In this document: piece by piece, positions 12,964 to 28,843 of the stretch
How the letters are laid out: every line of letters begins with the position of its first letter
Position numbering within the stretch: the first letter of the stretch is position 1
NCBI GenBank assembly: GCA_012517065.1
Contig: JAAYVR010000163.1
Span: forward strand, 1 to 46,111
From: Verrucomicrobiota bacterium
GTDB taxonomy: Bacteria > Verrucomicrobiota > Verrucomicrobiia > Limisphaerales > J093
Reading direction: 5' to 3'
Length of the DNA stretch: 46,111 nt
Made by a program: the position numbers and the translations under genes
The notes under the pieces: model-generated
The model's database searches: none
Seen by the model: the letters and a program-made list of their open reading frames with translations, nothing else
What the model was told of the DNA's origin: nothing

Positions 12964-12992
12964 ACTAGCATTCATCGAGCAGTATCACCTCT

Positions 12993-13100
12993 GAACGTTG
13001 CACGTTGAGCGTTGCACGTTGAACGTTCTCGAGAAGACGACCAAGCCGATAAACCTATGAAAACTTTCAACGTACAACGTTCAACTTACAACGTTCAACT
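12993..13100. repeat. Inverted array of short AACGTTGA-type repeats
   Basis: The left arm (12993-13027) repeats CGTTGCACGTTGA-like units. The right arm (13066-13100) carries the reverse complement (CAACGTTCAACTTACAACG). About 38 bp of non-repetitive sequence separates the arms, so the region could fold into a long cruciform or be a small mobile palindrome. Confidence 0.7.
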
Positions 13101-14803: not shown

Positions 14804-14925
14804 CTTCCGCCTGGAGCCGGGACTCTAACAGCCGTGGGCGTGGCATCGCCCAAGGTGCAGAGCAACCCATCGCCGCTAGAGTTCCGCGTTTACGCGGAAC
14901 ACAGGCAGTTCACTGAACAGTGCTT
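14803..14925 (-). repeat. Paired-hairpin repeat, copy 4 (inverted)
   Basis: It has a degenerate hairpin TTCCGCC-TGGA-GCCGGGA at the left and an intact GTTCCGCG-TTTA-CGCGGAAC at 14881-14900, then the usual ACAGGCAGTTCACTGAACAGTG flank. Confidence 0.75.
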
Positions 14926-14940
14926 CATGATCAGGCTCAT

Positions 14941-15067
14941 GAAACTGTTCCGCCTAAAGGCGGGACTCTAACGGCCGTGGGCGTGGCATCGCCCGATGCG
15001 CGGAACAACCCATCGCCGCTAGACTTCCGCGTTTACGCGGAACACAGGCAGTTCACTCAACAGTGCT
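14941..15067 (-). repeat. Paired-hairpin repeat, copy 5 (inverted)
   Basis: The hairpins TTCCGCC-TAAA-GGCGGGA (from about 14949) and TTCCGCG-TTTA-CGCGGAA (from about 15026) bound a spacer nearly the same as in copies 4 and 6. Copies 4-6 form a loose tandem run. Confidence 0.8.
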
Positions 15068-15075
15068 CATGCTCA

Positions 15076-15185
15076 GTTTCACGGAACTGTTCCGCCTAAA
15101 GGCGGGACTCTAACGGCCGTGGGCGCGACATCGTCCAATGTGCCCAATAACCAATCGCTGTTAGAGCTCCGCGTTTACGCGGGAA
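15076..15185 (-). repeat. Paired-hairpin repeat, copy 6 (inverted)
   Basis: It opens with GTTTCACGGAACTG, then TTCCGCC-TAAA-GGCGGGA, and ends at CTCCGCG-TTTA-CGCGGGA. The spacer shares CTAACGGCCGTGGGCG with copy 5. Confidence 0.8.
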
Positions 15186-15912: not shown

Positions 15913-18900
15913 CTATCGCAATTCCAGCCCTTTTTTCACCTTTGCCAAGATGGCATTGATTGCCTTCAGCTTCGCCTCGCCGGCCTTGGGTTCCCCGCTC
16001 AACTCAATTCGCACGCGCAACTTCAACGTGTTGGGTACGGCCGCTTTCAGCAACTGACCCAGCGAGTCTGCCAAGTCCATAAGCTCCTGCGGTTCCATTT
16101 CATCCTCCAAGGTGAACGTACCTGGTCGGTTCACCGACGGCGGTGGTGTGACCGGCACGGGCACGTTCTTCGGGCGTTGAAGCTTGACCGCCGCGGCCCC
16201 GCTCAGCGGGCAGGGCCATGGCCCGGAATCCGCTGTCCGTTCGAGCAACCTCGCCCGGATAGCCCCGTCAATCGCATCTCGCACCACCGGCCACGGCAGT
16301 GCCTTTCCCTTCGCTACCGACAACTGGTTTGCCAAGCCGAGTGCCGTGGTTTCATTCCCGTTCCATGCCGCCGGTAGTTGTTCTGGCAACAGCCAGTTCA
16401 CGTCGATCGGTTCTGGCGGCGGAAACAACAAAGCTGCGTCGGCCAGGACACCCGTCGGGATCGGTTCACCGCAGATGCTCGCAACCCCTGACACCAGCCA
16501 CAGCTTCCCCGTTTCCACCGCGGCCTTCACCCCTGCGTACACCGCTTCGCGCTTGGCCGATGGGATCGGTGCCGTTTCGTCGTACAACGTGCCATCCGCT
16601 GCCGCACGCTTGGTTATGACGTACTTGTCACCCGCAAAGTAATTCACCACGTCGGCGACTGTGATCTGTCTGTGCGCCGGCCACAATTCCGGCAGCGCAT
16701 CAGGCGCAAGTAATGACGCCGGAATCTCCTCGAGTCGTGCTGATTCCGGAAGCACTACTTCCCAGGTTGGGTCTTTCTCGATGTCATCCACTGATACTTC
16801 CTGCCGCCAGATCGTCCGGAACGACTTATCCGGCCTCATTTGGCGCAGCACGAAAAACCCCTGCCGTGCACCATCCACCAAGGTTTCCAAAACCTCCCTG
16901 CGTCGCAGCATCTTGGGCAGCTTGGGCACCTGCGCAAAGGCCCCAACCAAGTCCTTGACTCGCCGTTCAGTCTCGCCCGGACGCCACAGATCATATGGCC
17001 CGCCCGGCAGCAGCGCATCAGCACTCACCGGAGTATCCTCAATCCGTGAACGAGGATCTTTCTTGATGGTCAGGAACAAAGGCTCGTCACTGGGCACAAT
17101 CTTGAACGCCTGGACATCGCCCGCCGCGCTTTGGGTCACCACGATGCAGTAGGCGTGCTTGATGGCTTCCATGATCTCCTCACGCGCCTTCTCCGTGTTC
17201 TGCTGCAAACGCACCCGGCGGACCTCATCGAGTTCCTGCCCTTTCAGCATGTCCCGAACTTCTTCCCATCCCAGGTAACTCCTCACCGCTGCCCGCGCCA
17301 CCTCCAAGCCATCCCGCGACGGCACCGCCAGCACCACCGCGTTCTTGTTTACCCGTGGGCGGTCTGGTCCGGTGGTCTCTTCGATGAACCGCTTCGCTTC
17401 CGCGCTCGGATTCCCTGACATCGATGCGCACTTGGGGCCCAGCACGGCGTAATGAAACTCGCCGTCGTCCTCGATGTCGCTCGGCTTCATCGGCAGGTTA
17501 TGAACTCTGGCCCCGGCGGCCGAGGCCCCAGCCGTCAGGTCCTTGGTCTTCCCGATCATTGTACTTAGCAGCGACTCGACTGTTTCCGTTTTCACGCGGT
17601 CCGCGCACGCCACGTCGTGCATCTGCTGCAGATTCGGGCGCGACCCCAGCCGCCACGTTTTCGGCAGCGCCTTGTCATCCTGCGGGAAGTTCGATTCGTC
17701 CAGGAACCACGACACATCCACCCACCGCCGCAACGCTTTCTCGAGCGTGATCCGGTCCGGGTTGGTCGCCCCCACCAGCACGAACAGTTCGTTCAGGTTC
17801 GCCGCCTTCCCGATCGGCTGCGAATGCACGAACGTGGCTATGACCGCTTGCTGGACTTCCCGTCCCTTGAGAGCGGCAAAACACTGTTCGATCTCCCTGG
17901 CCTTCGCCAGTTCTGTGTCCAAAATGAACGGCCAGTTGCTCTGGGCGCCCTCGTAGGTCTCCTTCCGAGCCACTTCTGCCAGTTCTCTTAGCCCTTCGGG
18001 AATCTTCGTTTCCCCCGGTTTGGGTAGAAAGACACTCGGTCCGATCAACGGCGACGGGTCCGACCCCGCCGCGTCCCGCAGCGCCAGGGCGAACGTGCGC
18101 AGGATGCCGCGCGTCCTCTGAAAGCCGGGCATCCCCGACCATTTCGCATAAAACACTTCTGTCAGTTCCGGATGAAACGGGTAGCTCAGCAAGTATTTTT
18201 GTTCGACGCCGATCCCGCCCCTGGACGTCGCCTCATCCAGCTTTCCGATCCCTTGAAGTGCAGCGATCACCTGCTGCCGGAATTTCTCCGCATCTTTGAT
18301 GGACTCCAAATCGAACAGCCGCCGTTTCAACACCTCTGCGGCTTCCTCTTTCGTCACTGGCTGGATTTCGTGTTCCCCCTCGCGTTGGAATATCTGGGAT
18401 AGCTCCGATTCAATCCTGCGTCCGGCCGAGTCGCTCTTTTCGACGTCCGAGGCAAGTAGGGACGCCACTACGCAGCAGCGGTCCGTTTTGGTCGCCGCCT
18501 GGGTCAGGTATTGGAAGAAGTTCTTCAATGTTTCCAGCCAGCCCGAATCTTGGCGCACCTTCTCGTGCGCGTACATCAGCACTTCATCCAACAACACCAG
18601 CAGCGCTCCGCATTCCTTCACCCCCAATTCGAGCAGCGACCGCATAAGGTTTTCCGCTGGGGCGGCCTCCCGTTCTTCCGATTTTCCGCTGGCGTGCAGC
18701 AGCTTGAGCCCGGCCTCGCCCGCAATTTGCCATGCCAGCAGACTCCAAGGCTGCTTCAGCCACCGCTTTTTCCCGGCGGGGCAGATCATCTCCATCCCCT
18801 TTTCCACGTCCAGCTTGTCGAAGGGCAACACCACGATCCGAGCCTTTGGAATCTGCAACCCACCCATTTCCGCGCGGAACTCTGCCACGGCGGGCACATT

Positions 18901-19227
18901 CGGCAGCTTCGCCGGGTCATTGTGAAGGTGATACTCGGTGATCAACGCGTGTGTCTTGCCGCCGCCGTAGGTCAGCGACAGTTGTCGCACTGCCTTGTCG
19001 CTCTTGCCTGCCAGTCGGTAGGCGACATCACGCGCCAGCACCCGGATGCCGCTGGCGGGAAACGTAAGCGTGAAAAATTCCTTCGGATCGCCATAGGCCG
19101 ACTTTGCCGTGCCCATCTTAACGTCGTAAAGATCGGCTGCGAACATCGCCAGCGTCAGCTCGCCAGACTTCACGTCCTCGCGCAGCTTCACCACTTCATG
19201 CCAGGGTTTGATTGTTCCGTTGCTCAT
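15913..19227 (-). CDS. DUF499 (COG1483) family ATPase of a defence operon
   Basis: A 1104-residue P-loop protein. The Walker A motif is LSLTYGGGKTHAL (GGGKT at residues 88-92). A Walker B-like strand ALLVLLDEVLMYAHEK follows near residue 210, in the DUF499 arrangement. The long middle part (residues about 270-700) and a C-terminal part with the low-complexity segment PVPVTPPPSVN have no motif I recognise. DUF499 proteins are large ATPases repeatedly found next to DUF1156 methyltransferases and SNF2-type helicases in defence loci; BrxC/PglY of BREX is a comparable large ATPase. The start at 19227 has an AGAGGC ribosome site and lies 8 bp after the previous stop. It is the last gene of the operon. 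Confidence 0.88.
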   Translation of the reverse strand: MSNGTIKPWHEVVKLREDVKSGELTLAMFAADLYDVKMGTAKSAYGDPKEFFTLTFPASGIRVLARDVAYRLAGKSDKAVRQLSLTYGGGKTHALITEYHLHNDPAKLPNVPAVAEFRAEMGGLQIPKARIVVLPFDKLDVEKGMEMICPAGKKRWLKQPWSLLAWQIAGEAGLKLLHASGKSEEREAAPAENLMRSLLELGVKECGALLVLLDEVLMYAHEKVRQDSGWLETLKNFFQYLTQAATKTDRCCVVASLLASDVEKSDSAGRRIESELSQIFQREGEHEIQPVTKEEAAEVLKRRLFDLESIKDAEKFRQQVIAALQGIGKLDEATSRGGIGVEQKYLLSYPFHPELTEVFYAKWSGMPGFQRTRGILRTFALALRDAAGSDPSPLIGPSVFLPKPGETKIPEGLRELAEVARKETYEGAQSNWPFILDTELAKAREIEQCFAALKGREVQQAVIATFVHSQPIGKAANLNELFVLVGATNPDRITLEKALRRWVDVSWFLDESNFPQDDKALPKTWRLGSRPNLQQMHDVACADRVKTETVESLLSTMIGKTKDLTAGASAAGARVHNLPMKPSDIEDDGEFHYAVLGPKCASMSGNPSAEAKRFIEETTGPDRPRVNKNAVVLAVPSRDGLEVARAAVRSYLGWEEVRDMLKGQELDEVRRVRLQQNTEKAREEIMEAIKHAYCIVVTQSAAGDVQAFKIVPSDEPLFLTIKKDPRSRIEDTPVSADALLPGGPYDLWRPGETERRVKDLVGAFAQVPKLPKMLRRREVLETLVDGARQGFFVLRQMRPDKSFRTIWRQEVSVDDIEKDPTWEVVLPESARLEEIPASLLAPDALPELWPAHRQITVADVVNYFAGDKYVITKRAAADGTLYDETAPIPSAKREAVYAGVKAAVETGKLWLVSGVASICGEPIPTGVLADAALLFPPPEPIDVNWLLPEQLPAAWNGNETTALGLANQLSVAKGKALPWPVVRDAIDGAIRARLLERTADSGPWPCPLSGAAAVKLQRPKNVPVPVTPPPSVNRPGTFTLEDEMEPQELMDLADSLGQLLKAAVPNTLKLRVRIELSGEPKAGEAKLKAINAILAKVKKGLELR

Positions 19228-19235
19228 AGAAGCCT

Positions 19236-19865
19236 CTATTGCTGTGAGAACCACTCTCGCAAGGTATTCTTCAATTTCACAAATGCCGCGTCCGTGCACC
19301 GTTCGAGGCTGACTTTCTCAGCCAGTTGTAGGTAAATCGACGACGATCTTGGACGGTGCGCTGTGCGCAGGGCCGCTTCCATTGCCTCCTTTGGAGCATG
19401 CGGCTTGGCCTCTCCTTCTCGCCAGTATCCCTCCTGCTTGAGCCTCAAGGGTAATTCGGAGGCAGGGGATTTCCATCCTAACACCTCCGGCACATGGGGT
19501 GAATCACTCCATATCCAGACCTCAAGCTCCGGGTTCAGCACAATCACCCGGGACCTGTCTTTCCATCCAGTCGCTGCGAGTTTGCCTTCAACCTCTGCCT
19601 CCAGCTCCTCTCGCGTTTTCTCCTCCGCCCCACAACCATCATGGTCAAATAGCACGATTGCCTTGCTGTATTCACTGAGCATGGAACGCAAAAAAGTATG
19701 CGATCTCAAATAGCATCCCGGGTCACGCTCGGAATGCGTAAAAATATCGGCTGTCACTGGCCTTATCCCCAGGGCGGGTCGCCGGGTCAAAATCCCACGG
19801 ACGGCGTACTCCATGTCCTTGTCCGCTACAAGCACCACCAAGTCTTTCTGCGGTGATGGGTTCAT
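19236..19865 (-). CDS. TOPRIM-like partner protein (RloB/DUF4276-like), putative nuclease
   Basis: A 209-residue protein. A first strand ends in VLVADKDMEYAV (Asp15, Asp17, Glu19), a second in KAIVLFDHDGCG (Asp74, Asp76), and NPELEVWIWSDSP follows near residue 111. The acidic strand, the DxD strand and a P-x-x-E-x-W motif are the pattern of TOPRIM-fold proteins such as RloB and DUF4276 members, which pair with ABC/AAA15-type ATPases in defence loci. Nuclease activity is inferred only. The ATG at 19865 overlaps the TGA of the ATPase gene (ATGA), so translation is probably coupled and the two proteins likely form a complex. A longer frame to 19916 exists but ignores this overlap. Confidence 0.7.
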   Translation of the reverse strand: MNPSPQKDLVVLVADKDMEYAVRGILTRRPALGIRPVTADIFTHSERDPGCYLRSHTFLRSMLSEYSKAIVLFDHDGCGAEEKTREELEAEVEGKLAATGWKDRSRVIVLNPELEVWIWSDSPHVPEVLGWKSPASELPLRLKQEGYWREGEAKPHAPKEAMEAALRTAHRPRSSSIYLQLAEKVSLERCTDAAFVKLKNTLREWFSQQ

Positions 19866-21133
19866 CCAAGCACCCCTCCAGCAAACAACACTCCAAGGTT
19901 GGTTTCCCCGCGCCAATCTTTCAACGCCGGGTGCTCATGTCCAGCGACGATGTCTGTCGCCCCATCACCGGTCTTCGCAAAACAGAGTACCTGTTTTGGC
20001 TCAACAATGCTCAGGATAACCGGTGAATGAGTGGCCAGCAGAACTTGGGCACCATAAGTGGACGACAACGATTGGAACACGGTTTCAACGGCCCTCGGAT
20101 GGATGCCATTTTCAGGCTCCTCAATCAGAAACACTCCCTGGAGATCCGGAAGGTAAGCCGGCAGCGTCAGGGCCAACAACCGCAACGTCCCGTCCGAAAC
20201 CATCCAGGACGGCACCTCCAACCCCCCGGCGTATTCGAGCACCAAGTATTTGTGTTTGTCGTCCTCTCGCTCATGAATGTCCACTCCCACTAGATCGGGC
20301 AAGGCCGTTTGAACATGTCGAATCCAGTCCTTGATCCGTTCAGGCGCCCGTTTCTTCAAATCATCTATCACCCACGGAAGATTTGAACCGTCGGGTCGGA
20401 ATCCCCTGCCCTGCCCTGGAGCGCTGGCTTTCCTGATGAGCAGACTGTTCAACACCAACGGCTGCACTCCTTGGCTGAGAAACGCCTTGAGCCAGGTGCA
20501 CACCGGAAACTTCGCCTCATCTTCAGGCAGATTTCCCAATGCGGATTTCTTCGGACCCAGTCTGATCGAAGGGAACCACCCCTTGCCAGAGGCTTCAGTC
20601 ACTTCCGAGTAGAAATTGTCGTTTCCGCCCTTTTTCTTCATCAACACAGACCGTTCCTGCCGGGAGGCTCTCTTGCTCATAATAGTGGCCGGCTCTTCAC
20701 GGGCGAATGGGAAAACCCTGTTTCGTTCTATGGTTGCGTTGCGGCGTCCGCTCTTGAGCAACGCTCGTTCATGGTTGATTCCATATTCATGGGTTTCAGC
20801 ATCAAACCCGATCTGCACCTCATACCGGATCGTATCAAATCCCCGACTTTTCCCGGCATTGACAATGGCAGATCGTTCTTCCGGAATCATTGCCTCAATG
20901 GCCAGCTCAAATCCGTTCCCCTGGCGCCCCCACATCAAATCCTCGAAATTCTGGGTGCGCTCTCTGATCGCTGCGTCCAAACCCTCCGCCACCATCTTTC
21001 CCAGGAAACTGACCACGTCCAGGAAGGTTGATTTTCCGCTGGCATTAGGGCCAACCAAAACGTGGAAGCCTCCAAGGTCCTGTCTGATGTATTTCAAGCA
21101 ACGGTAACGCCTTGCTTCAACGGCCGTTATCAT
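19862..21133 (-). CDS. AAA15-type (COG4637-like) ATPase of a defence operon
   Basis: A 423-residue ABC/SMC-like ATPase. Walker A is VGPNASGKSTF (residues 28-38). A long helical and variable middle follows, then a signature-like SDGTLRLLAL, Walker B GVFLIEEPENGIHP and the H-loop LLATHSPVIL. This is the single-polypeptide form with no membrane part that is frequent in OLD-, RloA- and retron-linked defence systems. It likely dimerises on ATP and controls the TOPRIM-like protein encoded by the overlapping next gene. The start at 21133 directly precedes the MITAVEARRYRCL strand expected of the family. The spacer to the methyltransferase gene is 88 bp, the second longest in the operon. Confidence 0.85.
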   Translation of the reverse strand: MITAVEARRYRCLKYIRQDLGGFHVLVGPNASGKSTFLDVVSFLGKMVAEGLDAAIRERTQNFEDLMWGRQGNGFELAIEAMIPEERSAIVNAGKSRGFDTIRYEVQIGFDAETHEYGINHERALLKSGRRNATIERNRVFPFAREEPATIMSKRASRQERSVLMKKKGGNDNFYSEVTEASGKGWFPSIRLGPKKSALGNLPEDEAKFPVCTWLKAFLSQGVQPLVLNSLLIRKASAPGQGRGFRPDGSNLPWVIDDLKKRAPERIKDWIRHVQTALPDLVGVDIHEREDDKHKYLVLEYAGGLEVPSWMVSDGTLRLLALTLPAYLPDLQGVFLIEEPENGIHPRAVETVFQSLSSTYGAQVLLATHSPVILSIVEPKQVLCFAKTGDGATDIVAGHEHPALKDWRGETNLGVLFAGGVLG

Positions 21134-21221
21134 AGTGGTGTTTTAGTATGCGGGTTCGTTTTCTCACAATTGACGTCCCAAGGCAGCCTTTTTTGTGTGT
21201 TCCATGCCTTTGTTGGTCCTC

Positions 21222-24200
21222 TCATTCGCGTTCCTTCGGGCTATTCACGGGCAGTTCTTGCTGGTAGGCCGCTCGCGCGCTCCTCCCCTGCACATGATTG
21301 CTCAGACTCTCCAGGATGGCTCGCTCTTCCGACCCAACGTCCGCCATCTCGATCAGCGCCTGCAGCACCGGCGGGAACAGCGCATTCGTCCGCAATCCGC
21401 GACTGTTCAGGTACTCGTCCACCTTCACGACATCCCCGGCCCGCCACAGATGCATAAGCCGGTGAATCTGGTCTATCAACGGAATAATTCGCGTTCGCGG
21501 CTTCTCCGCTGCCCCTTCTTCGAAGAGTTTCCCTTGCGCCGCATCCAGCCGCGCCTTGGGACTATCCACAACCGGGTCATAGCCCATGCCCGGCCGCTTC
21601 CGTTTGTTCCATGGCTTCAGCTTGAAGGTGCTGCTGGACCCTTCCACCATCTCTTCATCATCGTCCCCAGGCTCTTCATCTTGCTCATCGACATCACTGG
21701 TCCCGCCGCTCGGCACCAGCAGATCAAACGTGTCCACCAGGTCGCGGTCCGACAGGTTGCACGACACCGCGTACAGGATGCACGCGCCCGCTGGGGCCTC
21801 CTCCATCTTGAAATCGTTTCGATGGAGCAAGTAGTACGTCGTCACGTCATCCAGTTCATTGCCCACGAAAGGCACGGAAGGACACGAAAGGTCTTCTGCC
21901 CTCCCCTGTGTGCTGCTCTTTTCGTCTCTTTCGTGTGTTTCGTGGGGAAAACTCAGCAGCCGGCCCACCACAAAATCCAGCACCATCCGCCGCACATGCC
22001 GCAGAAACTCCGACACGCTCATCAGTTCGTTCGGCTTGTTCGCCTTCTTCACCACCGGGTATTGGCTGTACGCCTCCAGCGCCGGCCCCGTCGCCGCCCA
22101 CACAAAGTCCGGCCCCCGAATCCCCGCATCCCAAAAGTCCCGCAACCGCCCTGTAATCTTCTCCCGCATCTGCTGCAGCACCACATTGTCCCACCCAGGC
22201 CGCGCTGCCGGATTCCGCTTCTTGCACACAAGCCACACGGAAGAAGCCAGAGCGGCAGATGATTTCGCGCGCATACGCGTGCTCATCTCTGTCTGAATAG
22301 GCCAGCTCCCATCCACAACGAATCCAGATCTAACAAGGGCGGAGACCAGGGTCTCCCAAGCATCCGGTTGCTTGTTTGCGAATACGACGACCATCTTGCC
22401 CAAAGGCTTGAGCGCTTGGGCGCACCTTTGAAATACACGGGCCATGCCGTCCTCATAAACCGCCTTGGATTTCTCCTTGTCTCCATTATGGCGTCCTGAA
22501 TCATCAATCAGCTCGCCGTCATTATTCTTATGATCCCATTTAGGTGATAGTTCTTCCTTGAATGCCTCATCCAGTTCCGGGGCCAGGCTACGTAATGACC
22601 TCTTAAGCCAAAGATAAAAGAAATCCATCAAGTCTGAATAGGGTATTGCGTCGTAGTAAGGTGGATCCGTAACCACCGCATCGAAATCACTTTTATCAAG
22701 TTGAATCGCTGATTGCTGTTGCACCGTCGGCATCTCCGCGCCTCTGGCAGCAACAAGCGCGTGCTCAATAAAACGCGCCAGCCAGTCTAATTGGGCCTCG
22801 TAGGCGCCACCGACGTTATTTGTCAAAGCCAACTCCACAAAATCCCAAGTAATCGGTAGCGCAAATCGCGTGAAAGTATGGCCGATTAGTTCACGTGAAA
22901 GGTGCCAGACACAGATTTGCGAATTGTAGTCGGCAATCTTGTCAACCTGTAGTACCAAGTAGGATACCACAGCTTCTTTCCATTGTTGCGGGTATCCAAG
23001 CTCCCCGAGCATTTCAGCCGTCTGCCTAGTTTTTGCCACAAACATCCCCAGCGCCAGCAATTGTCTCGGCGTGAAAAGTTTGTGCCACTGGTCGAAACCA
23101 TAAAGGGGTACCCGGAATCCAAGCGCTTCCTTGTTCGGTAGCGGCTCGGTTGGTACCCCGAATGGAATATTCGCAAACACCTGCGGGATGCGCGCCTGCG
23201 CTTCGGTTGCCTTTTGCAGCTCCAGTTCGGTCGGCAGACGGTATTCCTTGCCAAGTTGTCCGTCCACAACCACGGCGGTCATGCACGCCCCCAGCCGGCC
23301 TGCTTGCCCTTCCAATCGAATGTCCTCCATGGTCATTATGTTGCCGTGGACCGGGCATTTGGCCCCGGACCGAGACATGGTCCCAGCACCAATCTTTCTG
23401 TCATGCTCCCTTCGTTGGGCTGTGTTCCCACCAACTTTCGGCACGTCCTCCTGAATGCCGAACTCGACACCAGTCCCATCCGCCTTCGGCGTCATCGTCA
23501 GCAACACCCGCTTGTCGTCTTTCTTGCACAGCCAGCGTGTCTTGAGCAGTGGTATGATCGTTTCGGGGTGGTGCTTGTTCTTGACCGTCCGTGCCCACAG
23601 ATAGGCCACCGTCGGCTTGGGCACCCAGCGCGGATTCGTCGGCTCCGCCAAATAATCCGCCGTGAACTCCTCGTTGAGCATCTTTTCATCCACCTCGCCC
23701 TCCGGCGTGAGCGGGCACAGCCGCAATCCCTTGGCCTCGATTTCCGCCGCGTGCTCCTTCTTCCACTGGGCCAGCCAGCTCTTGGGCACCTTGCGCTTCT
23801 CGGTTTCCAGCACCGGCTCCCACGTGGCATACGTCGGATAGAACTCGGCCAGTTCCTTGCGCGCTTGCTTTAGCACCCACCGCCCCCACGCCCGCACATG
23901 CCACGCCAAATCCGCCTCATATTTGTGGTCCACCGAAGGCACGAAATCAGACGAAATGTCCTTCAATTCACCTTGCTGGATTTCTCTTTTCCTTCCCGTG
24001 TCTTTGGTGTGTTTCGTGGGCAACGGCAATTTGTGGGCTTTGCAGAAGGCCTCCATGAACTCCCGGTCTTCCAGGATGAACTCCGGCAGCGGCAGTTTCT
24101 TGCCCGCCAGTTTCTGCGGGTATTCCAAGGTACATTTCAGGATGAACCACGCCACTGGGTTGATGTCTATGGCCGTGGCCTCGCATCCCAGCCGCATCGC

Positions 24201-24632
24201 CTCGAGCGGAATCGCCCCGCCCCCCGCAAATGGATCCAGCACCCGGGGAGCGCGGCCGCCGTAGGCCTCGCGAATTTTTTGCCGGAACCATTCCAGGTCT
24301 GGCCCGTTTTCCCGGCCCCAATGCAGGATGCCCCCGACGGTTTCCTCGGCCTGGATTTCCTCAATCTTGCCGTTGGGCATCTTCTTTTTCTTGACCGTTT
24401 TGCGCACCCGCCCACCGAGCTTCTCGAGGATTTTGGCGCGTTCCTCCGGGTCGCCGGGATCGGGCAGCAGGGTGGCGATGAGCGCCGCCCGGCACGCGGC
24501 CAGCGGTCGCCGCGCCGGCCAGATGTGCAGTGTCGAGATGTGCCCGTGGCGCACGTTCTTCTCATGCACTGAATCCAGTGACGCCTGCTTGAGCGGAAAC
24601 GCCACTTCAATCAATCGCGGTTTGTCATTCAT
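21222..24632 (-). CDS. DUF1156 (COG1743) DNA adenine methyltransferase
   Basis: A protein of about 1136 residues. The DUF1156 N-terminus is clear (FPLKQASLDSVHEKNVRHGH, then IWPARRPLAACRAAL). SAM motif I follows (RVLDPFAGGGAIPLEAMRLG, near residue 130) with the acidic TAIDINP strand, and catalytic motif IV DPPYYD lies near residue 655. The DPPY motif indicates N6-adenine (or N4-cytosine) methylation. In a defence setting it would mark self DNA. Two stretches, residues about 203-235 (THTK-like and KREIQQ) and 896-924 (HETHERDEK), are encoded by palindromic elements that look inserted in frame. The start at 24632 (MNDKPRLIEVAFP) matches the family; alternatives are 24647 and a TTG at 24659. Confidence 0.9.
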   Translation of the reverse strand: MNDKPRLIEVAFPLKQASLDSVHEKNVRHGHISTLHIWPARRPLAACRAALIATLLPDPGDPEERAKILEKLGGRVRKTVKKKKMPNGKIEEIQAEETVGGILHWGRENGPDLEWFRQKIREAYGGRAPRVLDPFAGGGAIPLEAMRLGCEATAIDINPVAWFILKCTLEYPQKLAGKKLPLPEFILEDREFMEAFCKAHKLPLPTKHTKDTGRKREIQQGELKDISSDFVPSVDHKYEADLAWHVRAWGRWVLKQARKELAEFYPTYATWEPVLETEKRKVPKSWLAQWKKEHAAEIEAKGLRLCPLTPEGEVDEKMLNEEFTADYLAEPTNPRWVPKPTVAYLWARTVKNKHHPETIIPLLKTRWLCKKDDKRVLLTMTPKADGTGVEFGIQEDVPKVGGNTAQRREHDRKIGAGTMSRSGAKCPVHGNIMTMEDIRLEGQAGRLGACMTAVVVDGQLGKEYRLPTELELQKATEAQARIPQVFANIPFGVPTEPLPNKEALGFRVPLYGFDQWHKLFTPRQLLALGMFVAKTRQTAEMLGELGYPQQWKEAVVSYLVLQVDKIADYNSQICVWHLSRELIGHTFTRFALPITWDFVELALTNNVGGAYEAQLDWLARFIEHALVAARGAEMPTVQQQSAIQLDKSDFDAVVTDPPYYDAIPYSDLMDFFYLWLKRSLRSLAPELDEAFKEELSPKWDHKNNDGELIDDSGRHNGDKEKSKAVYEDGMARVFQRCAQALKPLGKMVVVFANKQPDAWETLVSALVRSGFVVDGSWPIQTEMSTRMRAKSSAALASSVWLVCKKRNPAARPGWDNVVLQQMREKITGRLRDFWDAGIRGPDFVWAATGPALEAYSQYPVVKKANKPNELMSVSEFLRHVRRMVLDFVVGRLLSFPHETHERDEKSSTQGRAEDLSCPSVPFVGNELDDVTTYYLLHRNDFKMEEAPAGACILYAVSCNLSDRDLVDTFDLLVPSGGTSDVDEQDEEPGDDDEEMVEGSSSTFKLKPWNKRKRPGMGYDPVVDSPKARLDAAQGKLFEEGAAEKPRTRIIPLIDQIHRLMHLWRAGDVVKVDEYLNSRGLRTNALFPPVLQALIEMADVGSEERAILESLSNHVQGRSARAAYQQELPVNSPKERE
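21862..21946. repeat. Palindromic element A inside the methyltransferase gene
   Basis: The left arm is CCCACGAAAGGCACGGAAGG and on to CACGAAAGG. The right arm, CTTTCGTGTGTTTCGTGGGG, is close to its reverse complement. The 85 bp stay open in the coding frame and encode roughly FPHETHERDEKSSTQGR and the residues after it, between GRLLS and GNELDDVTTYYLLHR, which would be nearly adjacent in relatives as I recall the family. Confidence 0.7.
23931..24021. repeat. Palindromic element B inside the methyltransferase gene
   Basis: The left part is CACCGAAGGCACGAAATCAG and the right part GTGTCTTTGGTGTGTTTCGTGG, arms of the same ACGAAA type as element A. It encodes about 30 residues (KHTKDTGRKREIQQ and so on) just before ADLAWHVRAWGRWVL, a conserved family stretch. 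The reading frame is preserved. Confidence 0.65.
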
Positions 24633-24787
24633 ATACGGAGAGCCCATGAAACACACCAAAATCCAGAGAGAGGAACACGCACTTCTGAGTTTGAAATTGC
24701 CCGAGGATTGGCGGGCTATGGTCTATGTGTTCACCTTTAGCGTACATTCGCGTCGTTCGCGGGCATCCCTTCTGCGCTTTTTGCATG

Positions 24788-24829
24788 TTTCGCGGTATCT
24801 TCATTTCGTGCATTTCGTGTGTTTCGTGG
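24788..24829. repeat. Partial palindromic element C in the operon gap
   Basis: TTTCGCGG, CATTTCGTGCATTTCGTG and TGTTTCGTGG match the right arms of elements A and B. It lies in the 199 bp gap between the helicase stop and the methyltransferase start, the longest gap in the operon. No clear left arm is seen. Confidence 0.6.
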
Positions 24830-24831
24830 TC

Positions 24832-27800
24832 TCACCTCTCCGCGGCCTGCAACACGCTCGCCGCGTCCAGCACGATGCCGCCCTTCGCCCGAGCAATCAG
24901 TTTCCCGAACGGATCCTGGATGCGATGCAACTCCGGGTGTGACCCCGCGCAGTTGAACACCACGTAAAGCCAATACCGATCCCGCAGGTTGCATGCCTTC
25001 GCCCACTCGTTGTCCGACACCTCGATTTCCCCCACGCCGGCCCGGCCCTTCACCTCGATTGCCCGGGGCGCATCAGTTCCGTTGCGCGAAAGTAAATCAA
25101 ACCCCGGCCACGCTTCCAGCCCTTGCAGGACCGCCTTCTCCGGCGCAGACACATCCACCACCTGTCGCCCATGCTCTTCTTCGAAACCAATCGCCTTGAG
25201 CATGGCGATCTTTTCCACTTCCCGGTCATGGCGCTTGCGCTCTTCCGGGTCCGTCGAGGGCACAACCAGCGCGTGAGCGATGAACTCCGGGGCCTCCGCC
25301 CGCACCAAGTCCGGTTCCATCATCAACTCGGCTATCGCCCGTTCCCGCTGGGCTGCCAAGTTCCGCTGGCGCTCCTTCACCCGTTCCAACAGGTGCCGTG
25401 CCCGTGGGTCCCCCCCACGCGCCTTCTCCGCGCGGCGCGATCGCTCGATGGCCAGTTCCGCTTCATGATAGGCAAAGCCCCGTTGCAAGAACTCGAGCCG
25501 CTGCGGCAGGGTGGCTCTCAGTTCCTTCCGGCGTGCCTCCACCTGCGGTTCGAGCAGTTCCGTCATCAGCCACTTCTTGGCTCGCTCCACGGCCAAAAGC
25601 CCTTGCTGTCGAGCAAAATCGAACGTCACAGGTCCGGACTCGACGCCACGCAACAGCAGGAGTTGTTCGAGGGCCATTTCCCGGCATTCACCCGCCAGCG
25701 ATTGCCGCACCGCGACCAGCCGGCAATCCAGCGGAGTAAAGTGTGACGCTCGTGCCTCGGCTGCACCACCACCGCCAAGAGCCAGGGTCGGGCTGGGATC
25801 ATTGCGTCCCACCTTTACCCTCGCCACGTGCACAAAGTAGGGCGCTTCCGCCCACGGGTCGGTGAACACGCTCCCCGCCAGGGCTAGTGGCCCGAACCTT
25901 GATTGCACCAGCGAGCACAGCCGGTCGAACACGCGTTCGCCAGGGTGCAGGAACACCGCCGCCTCGCCCTCTTTCGGCTTCAGCACTGTGAACTGCCCCC
26001 GTGCCTCTTCAGGGTAGCTTTCCAACAAGGGCAGCATCCAGTCCGCCGCCCCCCGTTGTTCGGCCACGATTTGAAATCGGCCGTCTAGATCGCCTTCCAG
26101 CCGCAGACCCAACAACGGACAGGCTTTTTCCAGGAACCGCCTGACATAGCCCGGCAGAAGCCTCCGCAAGTCTTCTTTCTCTAGTTGCAGGCGGTGCTCG
26201 GCAAGGTGGGTGGCCACATCACCCGTGCGCGGATACCGCTGTTCGACCCGGCGCAACGTTTCCAGTGCTTTCTCTTTGGTCAGTCTGTGGTCAATCTCAT
26301 CAGCCAGTTCATCCGCGTTGTCTTCCACCACCGCCCGGATCATCAGGTCCCGCAGCGATATCCCCTCGAATTGGGCCCCGATCACATCGAACACCTTGTC
26401 CGAGGTCAGCGCCTTGCGAATGGCTTCCAGCTTCTCCAGCAGGCGCTTCAGCACCTTGCCCTCACGTGTCTTGCTCGCTACCAAGTTGAACAACACCACG
26501 CGATCAGCTTTCTGCCCATACCGGTGAATGCGCCCGAAGCGCTGTTCGATGCGCGCCGGGTTCCACGGAATGTCGTAGTTGATCATCAACCGACAGAACT
26601 GCATGTTCAGGCCTTCTCCAGCAGCATCCGTGCAAACCATGTAGCGCGCCCCGCCTTCGGTCGTCTTCCGGCGGAAGAAATCAACCTGCTGTTCCCGCTC
26701 CCGGTAGTCCATCCCGCCGTGAATGCTCGCTACTTGATCCTGGTAGCCCAAGCCTTTCAACCGGGTCACGATGTATTCAACCGTGTCCCGGTGTTCGCTA
26801 AAGATCAGGAATTTTTCGTCTGCGAACTGTGGATCGCGAAATGCTTCCAGCATCCGGTTAAACTTTGATTCCTCGCCCGACTCGTAAAGCGCCTCTGCCG
26901 CCCGACGCAGTTTCTCCACCTGGGCCCGTTCTTCTTCCAGTTCCGCCAGCGATGTGGCCACTACCCCCGCGAGCAACGTGTCTTCAGCCCGCTCGTTCTG
27001 TTCGACGCCGTTTTCGGCTTCTTCTTCGTCCGCCGTTTCCGATTCGAACACGTCCCTGAAACCACGGCTCGACTCGAGCTTCCGCTGCTGGTTGGCCAGT
27101 TCTTCTGCCGAGAGTTCACCTGACTCGATTTGCCGGATAAGTTCATCCAACTTTTGAATGCGCCGCTCAAACGACCGCATGAGTGCATACGACGAACTCG
27201 CCAGCCGCCGCTGAAACACGCTCATCGCTAGTCGCGCCGCCGATCGGTTCAGAATCCTGGCCCTATTGTAAACGGTCCGCATGTACTCAGTCGTGGCCTT
27301 ATAGACATCCTCTTCCGCCGGGCTCAAATCGAACGTCCACGTGTGCGATTCACGCACCGGGTAAAGCGGCCGCCCCTCGAAGTTCACCATCTCTTCCTTG
27401 GTTCGCCGAATGAAGTGCCCACGCTTGGCTTCGTCCGGGTAACTCTCAAACGCTTCGGGCGTAGCCAAAACATTCGGTTCCAGTAACCGCCACAGAGCGA
27501 AATACGGGTAGTCCACCCCCATGTGGGGCGTCGCTGTCAATAGCAAGACATGCCGCGCCTGCCACGGTAAAGCCAGGGAATCATCGCTCGCCGCCCCGCA
27601 CAGCGCCTCAGCCAACCGGTAGCGATCGGTCTTGGTTATGGTGCCATCGGGGTTCCGTCGTGCGGCCAGCTTGTGGGCCTCGTCGAAAATCACCAAGTCG
27701 TATGGAACCACTTCCGGCGCGCCTATCTTCGACAGCATCTTTTCTCCGGTCAGTGTGTCCACGCTCACGATCACCAAGTCCGCGTCCTCGCCCACGAACG

Positions 27801-28452
27801 GATTCCCAGCACGCACATCTCCGCCTACGACCAGCCGGAACGCCAGATTGAACAGCCGCCGCATTTCCCGGAGCCAGCTGCCGACCAGACCGGCAGGCGA
27901 CACCACCAGCACCCGCCGAATCAGTCGCCGCGCCAGCATTTCACGGATGTATAGCCCCGCCATGATCGTCTTTCCCGCGCCGGCGTCATCCGCCAGCAGA
28001 AATCTTAGCCGGGGCTGCTTCAGCATGACGTCATAAACCGCCATCCGCTGGTGGGGCAATGGATCAATAAGGGAAAGCTCGGCGGCAAATCCTGGGTTGG
28101 CCAAATGACCGAACCCCAACCGCTCCGCCTCAACCACCGACGCTACCACATCCGCCTTGCACGCAAAACTCGGCGCTTCGGCCGCAGTGCCGTCTTCGCG
28201 GAACGTCGGCAACAACTCCTGGCTGGTGGGACCAGTAACGCCGTAGGCTTCTTCCTCGAGCTTCAAGACTTGCTTCCATAGCGAAAACCCGGGCTTGGCC
28301 TTTCCCTTCTCCCACCGGCAGACAGAAATATGCGATACGCCAAGGCGTTCAGCAAAGCTCACTTGGGTCAGCCCCAGCTTTCCACGGACTTCCAGAATCC
28401 GCTTCGAGAAATCGGGAGGAACTTGCCTGCTTGTCAAATCCTTGCTGGGCAT
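24832..28452 (-). CDS. SNF2-type helicase with N-terminal XRE domain and C-terminal DUF3883
   Basis: A 1206-residue protein. Residues about 15-70 form an XRE helix-turn-helix (LGLTQVSFAERLGVSHISVCRWEKGKAKP). The superfamily 2 core follows: Walker A LLADDAGAGKT (residues 152-162), DEAH (257-260), motif III LLTATPHMG and the C-terminal lobe motif EQRFGRIHRYGQ. A coiled, charged region lies near residues 440-520. The last 120 residues (IEVKGRAGVGEIEVSDNEWAKA, YWLYVVFNC) are a DUF3883/NOV-C domain related to restriction-type nuclease folds. It is the first gene of the defence operon and has the strongest ribosome site seen there (AAGGAGG before the ATG). The fused XRE domain could let the helicase repress its own operon or bind DNA site-specifically. 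Confidence 0.9.
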   Translation of the reverse strand: MPSKDLTSRQVPPDFSKRILEVRGKLGLTQVSFAERLGVSHISVCRWEKGKAKPGFSLWKQVLKLEEEAYGVTGPTSQELLPTFREDGTAAEAPSFACKADVVASVVEAERLGFGHLANPGFAAELSLIDPLPHQRMAVYDVMLKQPRLRFLLADDAGAGKTIMAGLYIREMLARRLIRRVLVVSPAGLVGSWLREMRRLFNLAFRLVVGGDVRAGNPFVGEDADLVIVSVDTLTGEKMLSKIGAPEVVPYDLVIFDEAHKLAARRNPDGTITKTDRYRLAEALCGAASDDSLALPWQARHVLLLTATPHMGVDYPYFALWRLLEPNVLATPEAFESYPDEAKRGHFIRRTKEEMVNFEGRPLYPVRESHTWTFDLSPAEEDVYKATTEYMRTVYNRARILNRSAARLAMSVFQRRLASSSYALMRSFERRIQKLDELIRQIESGELSAEELANQQRKLESSRGFRDVFESETADEEEAENGVEQNERAEDTLLAGVVATSLAELEEERAQVEKLRRAAEALYESGEESKFNRMLEAFRDPQFADEKFLIFSEHRDTVEYIVTRLKGLGYQDQVASIHGGMDYREREQQVDFFRRKTTEGGARYMVCTDAAGEGLNMQFCRLMINYDIPWNPARIEQRFGRIHRYGQKADRVVLFNLVASKTREGKVLKRLLEKLEAIRKALTSDKVFDVIGAQFEGISLRDLMIRAVVEDNADELADEIDHRLTKEKALETLRRVEQRYPRTGDVATHLAEHRLQLEKEDLRRLLPGYVRRFLEKACPLLGLRLEGDLDGRFQIVAEQRGAADWMLPLLESYPEEARGQFTVLKPKEGEAAVFLHPGERVFDRLCSLVQSRFGPLALAGSVFTDPWAEAPYFVHVARVKVGRNDPSPTLALGGGGAAEARASHFTPLDCRLVAVRQSLAGECREMALEQLLLLRGVESGPVTFDFARQQGLLAVERAKKWLMTELLEPQVEARRKELRATLPQRLEFLQRGFAYHEAELAIERSRRAEKARGGDPRARHLLERVKERQRNLAAQRERAIAELMMEPDLVRAEAPEFIAHALVVPSTDPEERKRHDREVEKIAMLKAIGFEEEHGRQVVDVSAPEKAVLQGLEAWPGFDLLSRNGTDAPRAIEVKGRAGVGEIEVSDNEWAKACNLRDRYWLYVVFNCAGSHPELHRIQDPFGKLIARAKGGIVLDAASVLQAAER

Positions 28453-28588
28453 GATTCCTCCTTAGCACGCCAATGGGTAGTAGCCGGATATCGCATTCTT
28501 TCTCTTCGCTTCCCTGCAAGAACGGAATGACAGTCGGTTCCAAATCACAAGAACCAGAATAATCCATCGAGTGAATGTGGTCAATGGG

Positions 28589-28843
28589 TTATCTGATGCT
28601 AATTTTCAGATGTACCTCCTGCCACCGGTCTCCTTGATTCTCTCGCGCAAACCCGAAACCTCGGGTGTCCCCCGCTGAATCAGACCGACACCCGATCTTG
28701 CGACCTCCTACAATCGCGCAAATCTGGCGCCCATACTCTGCCAGGTTGCGGGGCAGCTCGAATCGTTCACCCTGTCGAGAGAAAACACCCCAATCAGCAG
28801 AAAGCGGAATCGCCCGGCCAGTATCGTGCACGCATGAATGCAA
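28589..28843 (-). CDS. Possible small ORF upstream of the helicase, not recognised
   Basis: An 84-codon frame from a TTG (a GTG five codons later also works), lying between the lactate permease gene and the helicase gene on the same strand. The product would be basic with no domain I recognise (WGVFSRQGERFELPRNLAEY, ICAIVGGRKIGCRSDSAG). No good ribosome site is seen. It could be a real small protein, a gene remnant, or chance. The rest of the 412 bp spacer (28453-28588 and 28844-28864) holds the helicase ribosome site and presumably its promoter. Confidence 0.25.
   Translation of the reverse strand: MHSCVHDTGRAIPLSADWGVFSRQGERFELPRNLAEYGRQICAIVGGRKIGCRSDSAGDTRGFGFARENQGDRWQEVHLKISIR

What the first reader, a model, noticed from the sequence alone, without database searches (positions are those of the whole stretch)
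15913..28452. Five-gene defence-type operon: XRE-helicase-DUF3883, DUF1156 methyltransferase, AAA15 ATPase, TOPRIM-like protein, DUF499 ATPase
All five genes are on one strand with short gaps or overlaps. DUF1156 (COG1743), DUF499 (COG1483) and SNF2-type helicases are known from computational work to cluster in defence islands, sometimes with Argonaute. COG1743 and COG0553 proteins also occur in BREX type 3 as PglXI and BrxHII. Here PglZ, BrxA, Argonaute and the DISARM DUF1998 protein are all missing, and an ATPase/TOPRIM-like pair is built in instead. This may be a distinct system or an undescribed subtype.
Basis: partly seen in the sequence, partly recalled or inferred. Interest (0 to 1): 0.82.

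Follow-up and report, generated by a model that had tools for sequence, protein, structure and literature searches.

The report
Hma defence operon carrying MAD3–MAD4 cassette
A known kind of bacterial anti-phage system (a DNA helicase-nuclease, a DNA methylase and an ATPase, called Hma) carries, between two of its genes, a two-gene ATPase/nuclease-like unit that also occurs alone or inside several other methylation-based systems, which suggests a portable emergency module shared among them.

Summary
In detail: five intact genes on the minus strand at 15913–28452, in the order stated. The system is not nameless. The three large genes are HmaA, HmaB and HmaC of the Hma system (2021), re-described in 2026 as "DUF499-centred BREX-related" systems. 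They best fit its Type-1, because HmaA ends in an intact PD-(D/E)XK nuclease. The ATPase/TOPRIM-like pair passes NCBI's cut-offs for MAD3 and MAD4 of the MADS system. It is not PADLOC's Hma-embedded pair HEC-01.

The order is not unique. hmaB–MAD3–MAD4–hmaC recurs in at least eight other genomes of four phyla, always in the hmaB|hmaC gap. Close relatives carry other cargo there or none. Elsewhere the pair usually stands alone, or sits inside type III, type I, BREX or MADS loci. Some free-standing pairs lie beside truncated pieces of hmaC, hsdS or mod, which look like scars of such moves. Trees require repeated gain and loss.

In this lineage HmaA starts with an XRE domain. A conserved 14-bp dyad lies beside its promoter, suggesting autoregulation.

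Verdict: a new variant of a known kind. Most likely a restriction-modification-like system with a PARIS-like backup effector; no activity was tested.

The parts
24832..28452 (-). hmaA: XRE helix-turn-helix + SNF2-type helicase + C-terminal NOV_C/DUF3883 PD-(D/E)XK nuclease (1206 aa)
   Evidence: PADLOC HmaA 540 bits; Pfam domains; GAGKT and DEAH motifs intact
28261..28395 (-). XRE-type HTH domain of HmaA (aa 20-64)
   Evidence: Pfam HTH_3 E 3e-6; present in eight of ten other HmaA homologues aligned, absent in L022 and L024
24922..25215 (-). NOV_C (DUF3883) nuclease domain of HmaA (aa 1080-1177)
   Evidence: Invariant E1091, D1119, E1133-x-K1135 in 11 homologues; model matches Hjc resolvases, Z 11.6 over 111 residues
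24648..24831 (-). hmaA|hmaB gap (cargo slot 1): no gene here; other Hma loci carry cargo at this place
21222..24647 (-). hmaB: DUF1156 amino-methyltransferase (1141 aa), motif I DPFAGGG (~aa 137), DPPY at aa 661; aa ~450-750 variable (probable target-recognition region)
   Evidence: PADLOC HmaB 412 bits; motifs; identity profile
19862..21133 (-). MAD3-like OLD/ABC-type ATPase (423 aa)
   Evidence: NCBIfam NF047739 522 bits, cut-off 420; Walker A GPNASGKS
19236..19865 (-). MAD4-like TOPRIM-fold protein (209 aa), ATGA overlap with MAD3; conserved D15, D74-x-[D/E]76, E115, K159
   Evidence: NCBIfam NF047734 243 bits, cut-off 160; alignment; model and fold search
15913..19227 (-). hmaC: DUF499 AAA+ ATPase (1104 aa), GGGKT Walker A near aa 88
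   Evidence: PADLOC HmaC 262 bits; Pfam DUF499; motif
28589..28602 (-). 14-bp dyad TTAGCATCAGATAA, candidate operator for the XRE domain
   Evidence: Conserved upstream of hmaA in four relatives; exact palindrome TTAGCATATGCTAA in L021; only match in the window, 0.04 expected
28556..28584 (-). candidate promoter TTGACC-N17-TATTCT next to the dyad
   Evidence: Consensus match inside the conserved upstream block

Best explanation
This is an Hma system (Type-1 DUF499-centred BREX-related) with a MAD3-MAD4 cassette between hmaB and hmaC. HmaB marks host DNA by amino-methylation (probably N6-adenine) at a site set by its variable middle region. HmaC (AAA+) and HmaA (SNF2 translocase) scan DNA, and the C-terminal PD-(D/E)XK domain of HmaA cuts unmarked phage DNA. 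MAD3 holds MAD4 inactive, as AriA holds AriB in PARIS; when a phage disables the methylation system or makes a trigger protein, MAD4 is released and cuts nucleic acid, stopping infection at the cell's expense. HmaA's XRE domain binds the dyad at the promoter and limits expression. Shown here: gene content, families, intact motifs, predicted folds, conservation of the order, and repeated movement of the cassette. Inferred: every biochemical activity, the guard logic and the autoregulation.
For: Family assignments. Catalytic motifs intact. dN/dS about 0.10-0.15 where dS is not saturated. PD-(D/E)XK fold with invariant E/D/ExK. MAD4 TOPRIM-type fold closest to OLD, also AriB. MAD3 profile matches PtuA, OLD, GajA and AriA structures. 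The pair is in hmaB|hmaC in every Hma locus that carries it. Free-standing, BREX, type I, type III and MADS contexts. Scars. Repeated gain and loss on the MAD3+MAD4 tree and on the HmaB and HmaC trees. Conserved dyad. Literature: Hma (PMC8565338); BR Type-1 nuclease helicase and OLD-ABC/TOPRIM backup effectors (PMC12839542); ABC+Toprim in MADS and the PARIS mechanism (PMC12409363).
Against: No activity data. MAD4 has Asp, not the usual TOPRIM Glu, after strand 1, so catalysis is not assured. Most pairs stand alone, so the pair may have its own trigger unrelated to methylation systems. The dyad is imperfect in the window itself and was seen only in four close relatives. Structure matches for MAD4 rest on one model and moderate Z values.
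Confidence: 0.6

Rival explanations
1. MAD3-MAD4 is an independent defence system with its own trigger that merely sits inside Hma because two genes in a conserved operon gap are co-expressed and co-transferred (passenger in a defence hotspot).
For: Most of the 80 loci are free-standing among ordinary genes. Hma gaps take many unrelated cargos: DUF1016 nuclease, HEC-01, Schlafen-AlbA, ClpP-like + DUF3800.
Against: The cassette recurs inside methylation-based systems of several kinds, more than a random passenger would suggest, although no formal enrichment test was made.
Confidence: 0.3
2. MAD3-MAD4 are working parts of the Hma restriction machinery itself (needed for cutting or for methylation), as mad genes are reported to be in MADS.
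For: Immediate position, ATGA coupling and short gaps; MADS is reported to need most of its genes (from memory of Maestri et al. 2024; paper not held).
Against: Close Hma relatives lack the pair (L113, L114, L115, L023) and the label changes at least three times on each core tree; the own genome's second Hma lacks it too.
Confidence: 0.1
3. A new BREX- or DISARM-like system.
For: HmaA resembles BrxHII and DrmD, HmaB weakly resembles PglXI.
Against: Hma profiles win by a wide margin; DrmD scores 340 against a cut-off of 610; no PglZ or DUF1998 protein in the operon.
Confidence: 0.03

Closest known systems
Hma (helicase-methylase-ATPase), Payne et al. 2021, PMC8565338
   Same: All three core proteins, best profile matches
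   Different: Carries MAD3-MAD4 between hmaB and hmaC; XRE domain at the HmaA N-terminus; HmaB has DPPY, an amino-methyltransferase motif, whereas the 2021 paper calls it m5C
Type-1 DUF499-centred BREX-related (BR) systems, PMC12839542
   Same: ATPase, DUF1156 N6-MTase, Swi2/Snf2 helicase with C-terminal active REase; OLD-ABC/TOPRIM effectors within or near such loci
   Different: XRE HTH instead of the described N-terminal TUDOR; the main text does not mention MADS, so the MAD3/MAD4 identity is not stated there
MADS (methylation-associated defence system)
   Same: MAD3 and MAD4 pass NCBIfam equivalog cut-offs
   Different: The other MAD genes are absent; the MADS-type pairs found here (L025, L032) are only 31-37% identical and branch far away
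PARIS (AriA-AriB)
   Same: OLD-type ABC ATPase plus separate TOPRIM-fold partner; MAD4 model aligns to AriB
   Different: MAD4 has no AriB profile match; trigger and target unknown
HEC-01 (PADLOC candidate pair, by its name embedded in Hma)
   Same: ATPase + TOPRIM-like pair inside Hma
   Different: Different family: true HEC-01 pairs in L023 and L029 score 658/318 and 648/293 bits and sit in the hmaA|hmaB gap; the window pair scores 149/31

Membership tests
Hma | HmaA, HmaB and HmaC homologues in one operon | tested here: met
   540, 412 and 262 bits, best PADLOC profiles for each
Type-1 BR (DUF499-centred) | Helicase with C-terminal active PD-(D/E)XK nuclease | tested here: met
   NOV_C with invariant E/D/ExK; Hjc-like fold; activity itself not tested
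Type-1 BR (DUF499-centred) | N-terminal TUDOR domain on the helicase | tested here: inconclusive
   The N-terminus is an XRE HTH; aa 65-110 was not modelled
Type-2 BR | HKD nuclease on the helicase and a DUF3780 gene | tested here: not met
   No such Pfam match in the five proteins
MADS | MAD3 and MAD4 | tested here: met
   522/420 and 243/160 bits
MADS | The remaining MAD genes (type I-like N6 MTase, specificity subunit, kinase etc.) | tested here: not met
   None among the operon's five proteins; the methylase is HmaB. MADS gene list from memory plus the L025 locus
HEC-01 | HEC-01A/HEC-01B family pair | tested here: not met
   149/31 bits against 658/318 for true members
PARIS | AriB (DUF4435 TOPRIM) partner | tested here: not met
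   No AriB profile match; fold similarity only
BREX | PglZ and BrxC | tested here: not met
   No match in the operon's proteins
DISARM | DrmD over cut-off, DUF1998 DrmB | tested here: not met
   DrmD 340 against cut-off 610; no DUF1998
Any of the above | Anti-phage activity | not testable with these tools
   Needs experiment

The most novel reading that the evidence does not exclude
MAD3-MAD4 is a general guard cassette of methylation-based immunity: one two-gene unit that plugs into Hma, BREX, MADS, type I and type III systems (usually next to the methylase gene), watches for their failure or inhibition, outlives them when they decay (leaving scars of hmaC, hsdS or mod), and re-enters new ones.
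Probability: 0.3. Interest if true: 0.7.

Novelty: new variant of a known kind. Interest (0 to 1): 0.45.

Why it matters
It ties together literatures that use different names (Hma, BR, MADS) and points to one portable ATPase/TOPRIM module common to several methylation-based defences. If the module is triggered by failure of its host system, it would help explain why restriction-type systems so often carry nested abortive modules, and the question becomes testable by moving one cassette between systems.

Tried and rejected
Rejected: BREX, DISARM, HEC-01, PARIS and full MADS membership (see table). Viral contigs and phage records: no relative of the pair; plasmids hold only two distant MAD3 matches. 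Rfam and tRNA scans of the window: nothing. Empty-site test in the congener G388: homology stops at window 14670 and 28813, but the two flanks lie on different contigs with other neighbours, so insertion and rearrangement cannot be told apart. Neighbour scan of free-standing pairs: mostly ordinary genes, no universal third gene. The preprint on embedded defences (10.1101/2024.01.29.577857, cited in PMC12255303), the MADS paper and the supplementary tables of PMC12839542 were not readable here, so prior mention of this exact combination cannot be excluded.

Full report
WHAT IS THERE. Its closest relatives with the same operon are Verrucomicrobiota. The five genes are intact, on the minus strand, 5' to 3': hmaA 28452-24832, hmaB 24647-21222, MAD3 21133-19862, MAD4 19865-19236, hmaC 19227-15913. 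Gaps are 184 bp between hmaA and hmaB and 88 bp between hmaB and MAD3; MAD3/MAD4 overlap as ATGA; MAD4 and hmaC are 8 bp apart.

WHAT THE CORE IS. The three large genes match the PADLOC profiles HmaA, HmaB and HmaC better than any other. Hma was named in 2021 as a helicase/methylase/ATPase operon found in 26 phyla and often beside Septu (PMC8565338). A 2026 survey describes the same systems as DUF499-centred BREX-related (BR), types 1-3, and says Type-1 helicases carry a C-terminal active REase (PMC12839542). Here HmaA's C-terminal NOV_C/DUF3883 has invariant E1091, D1119 and E1133-x-K1135 in 11 homologues. An AlphaFold model of it (mean pLDDT 83) matches Hjc resolvases, Z 11.6 over 111 residues. 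So HmaA is a helicase with an intact PD-(D/E)XK nuclease signature, which fits Type-1. HmaB has motif I and DPPY. Its identity to two relatives falls to 32-70% at aa ~450-750, with short dips near 201-250 and 901-950, against 66-94% elsewhere, as expected for a target-recognition region. DPPY points to an amino-methyltransferase, not m5C.

WHAT THE PAIR IS. NCBIfam assigns MAD3 (522 bits, cut-off 420) and MAD4 (243 bits, cut-off 160), proteins of the methylation-associated defence system. The MAD4 model (mean pLDDT 91) has a TOPRIM-type fold; its best match is the C-terminal domain of OLD nucleases (Z 10.8, 180 residues, rmsd 4.5), with PARIS AriB at Z 8.3. Conserved positions are D15, D74, D/E76, E115 and K159; the residue after strand 1 is Asp where TOPRIM usually has Glu (general knowledge). 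MAD3 matches PtuA, OLD, GajA and AriA ATPases. A paper on PARIS already lists MADS among ABC-ATPase/Toprim associations (PMC12409363). PADLOC's pair HEC-01 is another family: true members in L023 and L029 score 658/318 and 648/293 bits, the window pair 149/31. L029 carries both, HEC-01 in the hmaA|hmaB gap and MAD3-MAD4 in the hmaB|hmaC gap.

HOW GENERAL IT IS. hmaB-MAD3-MAD4-hmaC is found in L020/L034 (one genome seen twice), L033, L027, L029, L048, L064, L066 and L084, and MAD3-MAD4-hmaC at a contig start in L026: Verrucomicrobiota, Planctomycetota, Chloroflexota and Thermodesulfobacteriota. Other Hma loci of the same subfamily have a DUF1016 nuclease (L113), a Schlafen-type protein (L023), other genes (L115) or no gene (L114) there, and the more distant L116 has none. 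In 79 of 80 MAD4 loci from public genomes MAD3 lies directly upstream; the other is cut by a contig edge. Most of these pairs are free-standing among ordinary genes. Others sit in Hma; in BREX between BrxC and PglX (L079, with PglZ); in type III loci between mod and res (L044, L059, L080); in type I loci behind hsdS (L076, L095); next to a type IIG enzyme (L041); or in MADS-like loci (L025, L032). These counts are lower bounds, since many contigs are short and only a few query proteins were used. The 80 loci came from one peptide pattern and are the closest relatives only, so this is not an unbiased census.

SCARS AND TREES. Some free-standing pairs lie against truncated pieces of such systems: the first ~60-64 codons of hmaC right behind MAD4 in L103 (84% identical to L029) and L049; the end of hsdS before and the start of hsdR after the pair in L082; the start of mod before it in L060. 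On a MAD3+MAD4 tree the Hma label needs at least six changes. On the HmaC and HmaB trees presence of the pair needs at least three. For example L029 has it and its neighbour L115 does not; L027 has it and L113 does not. The cassette therefore moves in and out of Hma; direction is not resolved.

REGULATION. An XRE HTH begins HmaA in the window and in eight of the ten homologues aligned with it; it is absent in L022 and in the genome's own second Hma, L024. Upstream of hmaA, four relatives share a block holding a 14-bp dyad (TTAGCATATGCTAA in L021; TTAGCATCAGATAA at 28589-28602 here) beside a -35/-10 pair. The pattern occurs once in the window against 0.04 expected. Autoregulation by HmaA is the simplest reading; it is inferred.

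SELECTION. Against L033 and L020, dN/dS is about 0.10-0.15 for genes whose dS could be computed and is not saturated; the other comparisons have saturated dS with low dN. So the genes are kept, not decaying.

MECHANISM. Most likely a restriction-modification-like system with a backup suicide effector working like PARIS. That logic is established for PARIS (AriA sequesters AriB, a tRNase, until a trigger such as Ocr), and OLD-ABC/TOPRIM units have been proposed as backup effectors of BREX and BR systems. For this operon all activities are inferred.

NOVELTY. The core is known, and embedding in Hma is known ('Septu in Hma systems', 'guilt-by-embedding', PMC12255303). What I could not find named is the MAD3-MAD4 pair as Hma cargo and as a mostly free-standing, exchangeable cassette. 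The relevant preprint, the MADS paper and the supplementary tables could not be read.

Noticed in passing
window 14805-15182 and 126-403: A ~143-bp dispersed repeat with palindromic arms (TTCCGCGTAAACGCGGAA type); 54 matches in this genome and related repeat sequence abundant in the same-genus genome G388.
   Followed up: partly
L024 2545-14531 (contig C154 of the same genome): A second, distant Hma system (25-39% identical) without XRE domain or MAD3-MAD4; a UvrD-like helicase in gap 1, a small membrane-like protein in gap 2, Hsp70-like gene downstream; a perfect 16-bp palindrome TTGTTTACGTAAACAA lies 99 bp upstream of its hmaA.
   Followed up: partly
L020 7436-8599, L029 10959-12206, L113 7456-8631: A DUF1016/YhcG PD-(D/E)XK protein is a recurrent second cargo in Hma gaps.
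   Followed up: partly
L022 5038-7371: The hmaA|hmaB gap carries a ClpP-like SDH-type protease and a DUF3800 protein.
   Followed up: no
L020 15758-19068: hmaC of the relative G400 appears frameshifted near 16,830 (two overlapping tblastn pieces; pseudogene or assembly error).
   Followed up: no
L039 and L050: Two Moorella species share the MAD3-MAD4 site; in L050 MAD3 is split into two ORFs, and in L039 an Hma-like hmaC and hmaB lie next door on the opposite strand.
   Followed up: no
L076 11169-12908: A SIR2-associated Argonaute-system-type protein lies just downstream of MAD3-MAD4 in a type I RM locus.
   Followed up: no
L030 11707-16637, L031 16-4377: Free-standing MAD3-MAD4 between serine hydroxymethyltransferase and seryl-tRNA synthetase genes in two genomes.
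   Followed up: no
L023, about 315 bp upstream of 4447: A tRNA T-arm-like sequence (GGGGGTTCGAATCCCC) upstream of this Hma operon suggests integration next to a tRNA gene.
   Followed up: no
window 12992-13100: Short tandem repeats of TGAACGT / AACGTTCAACTTAC units between genes.
   Followed up: no
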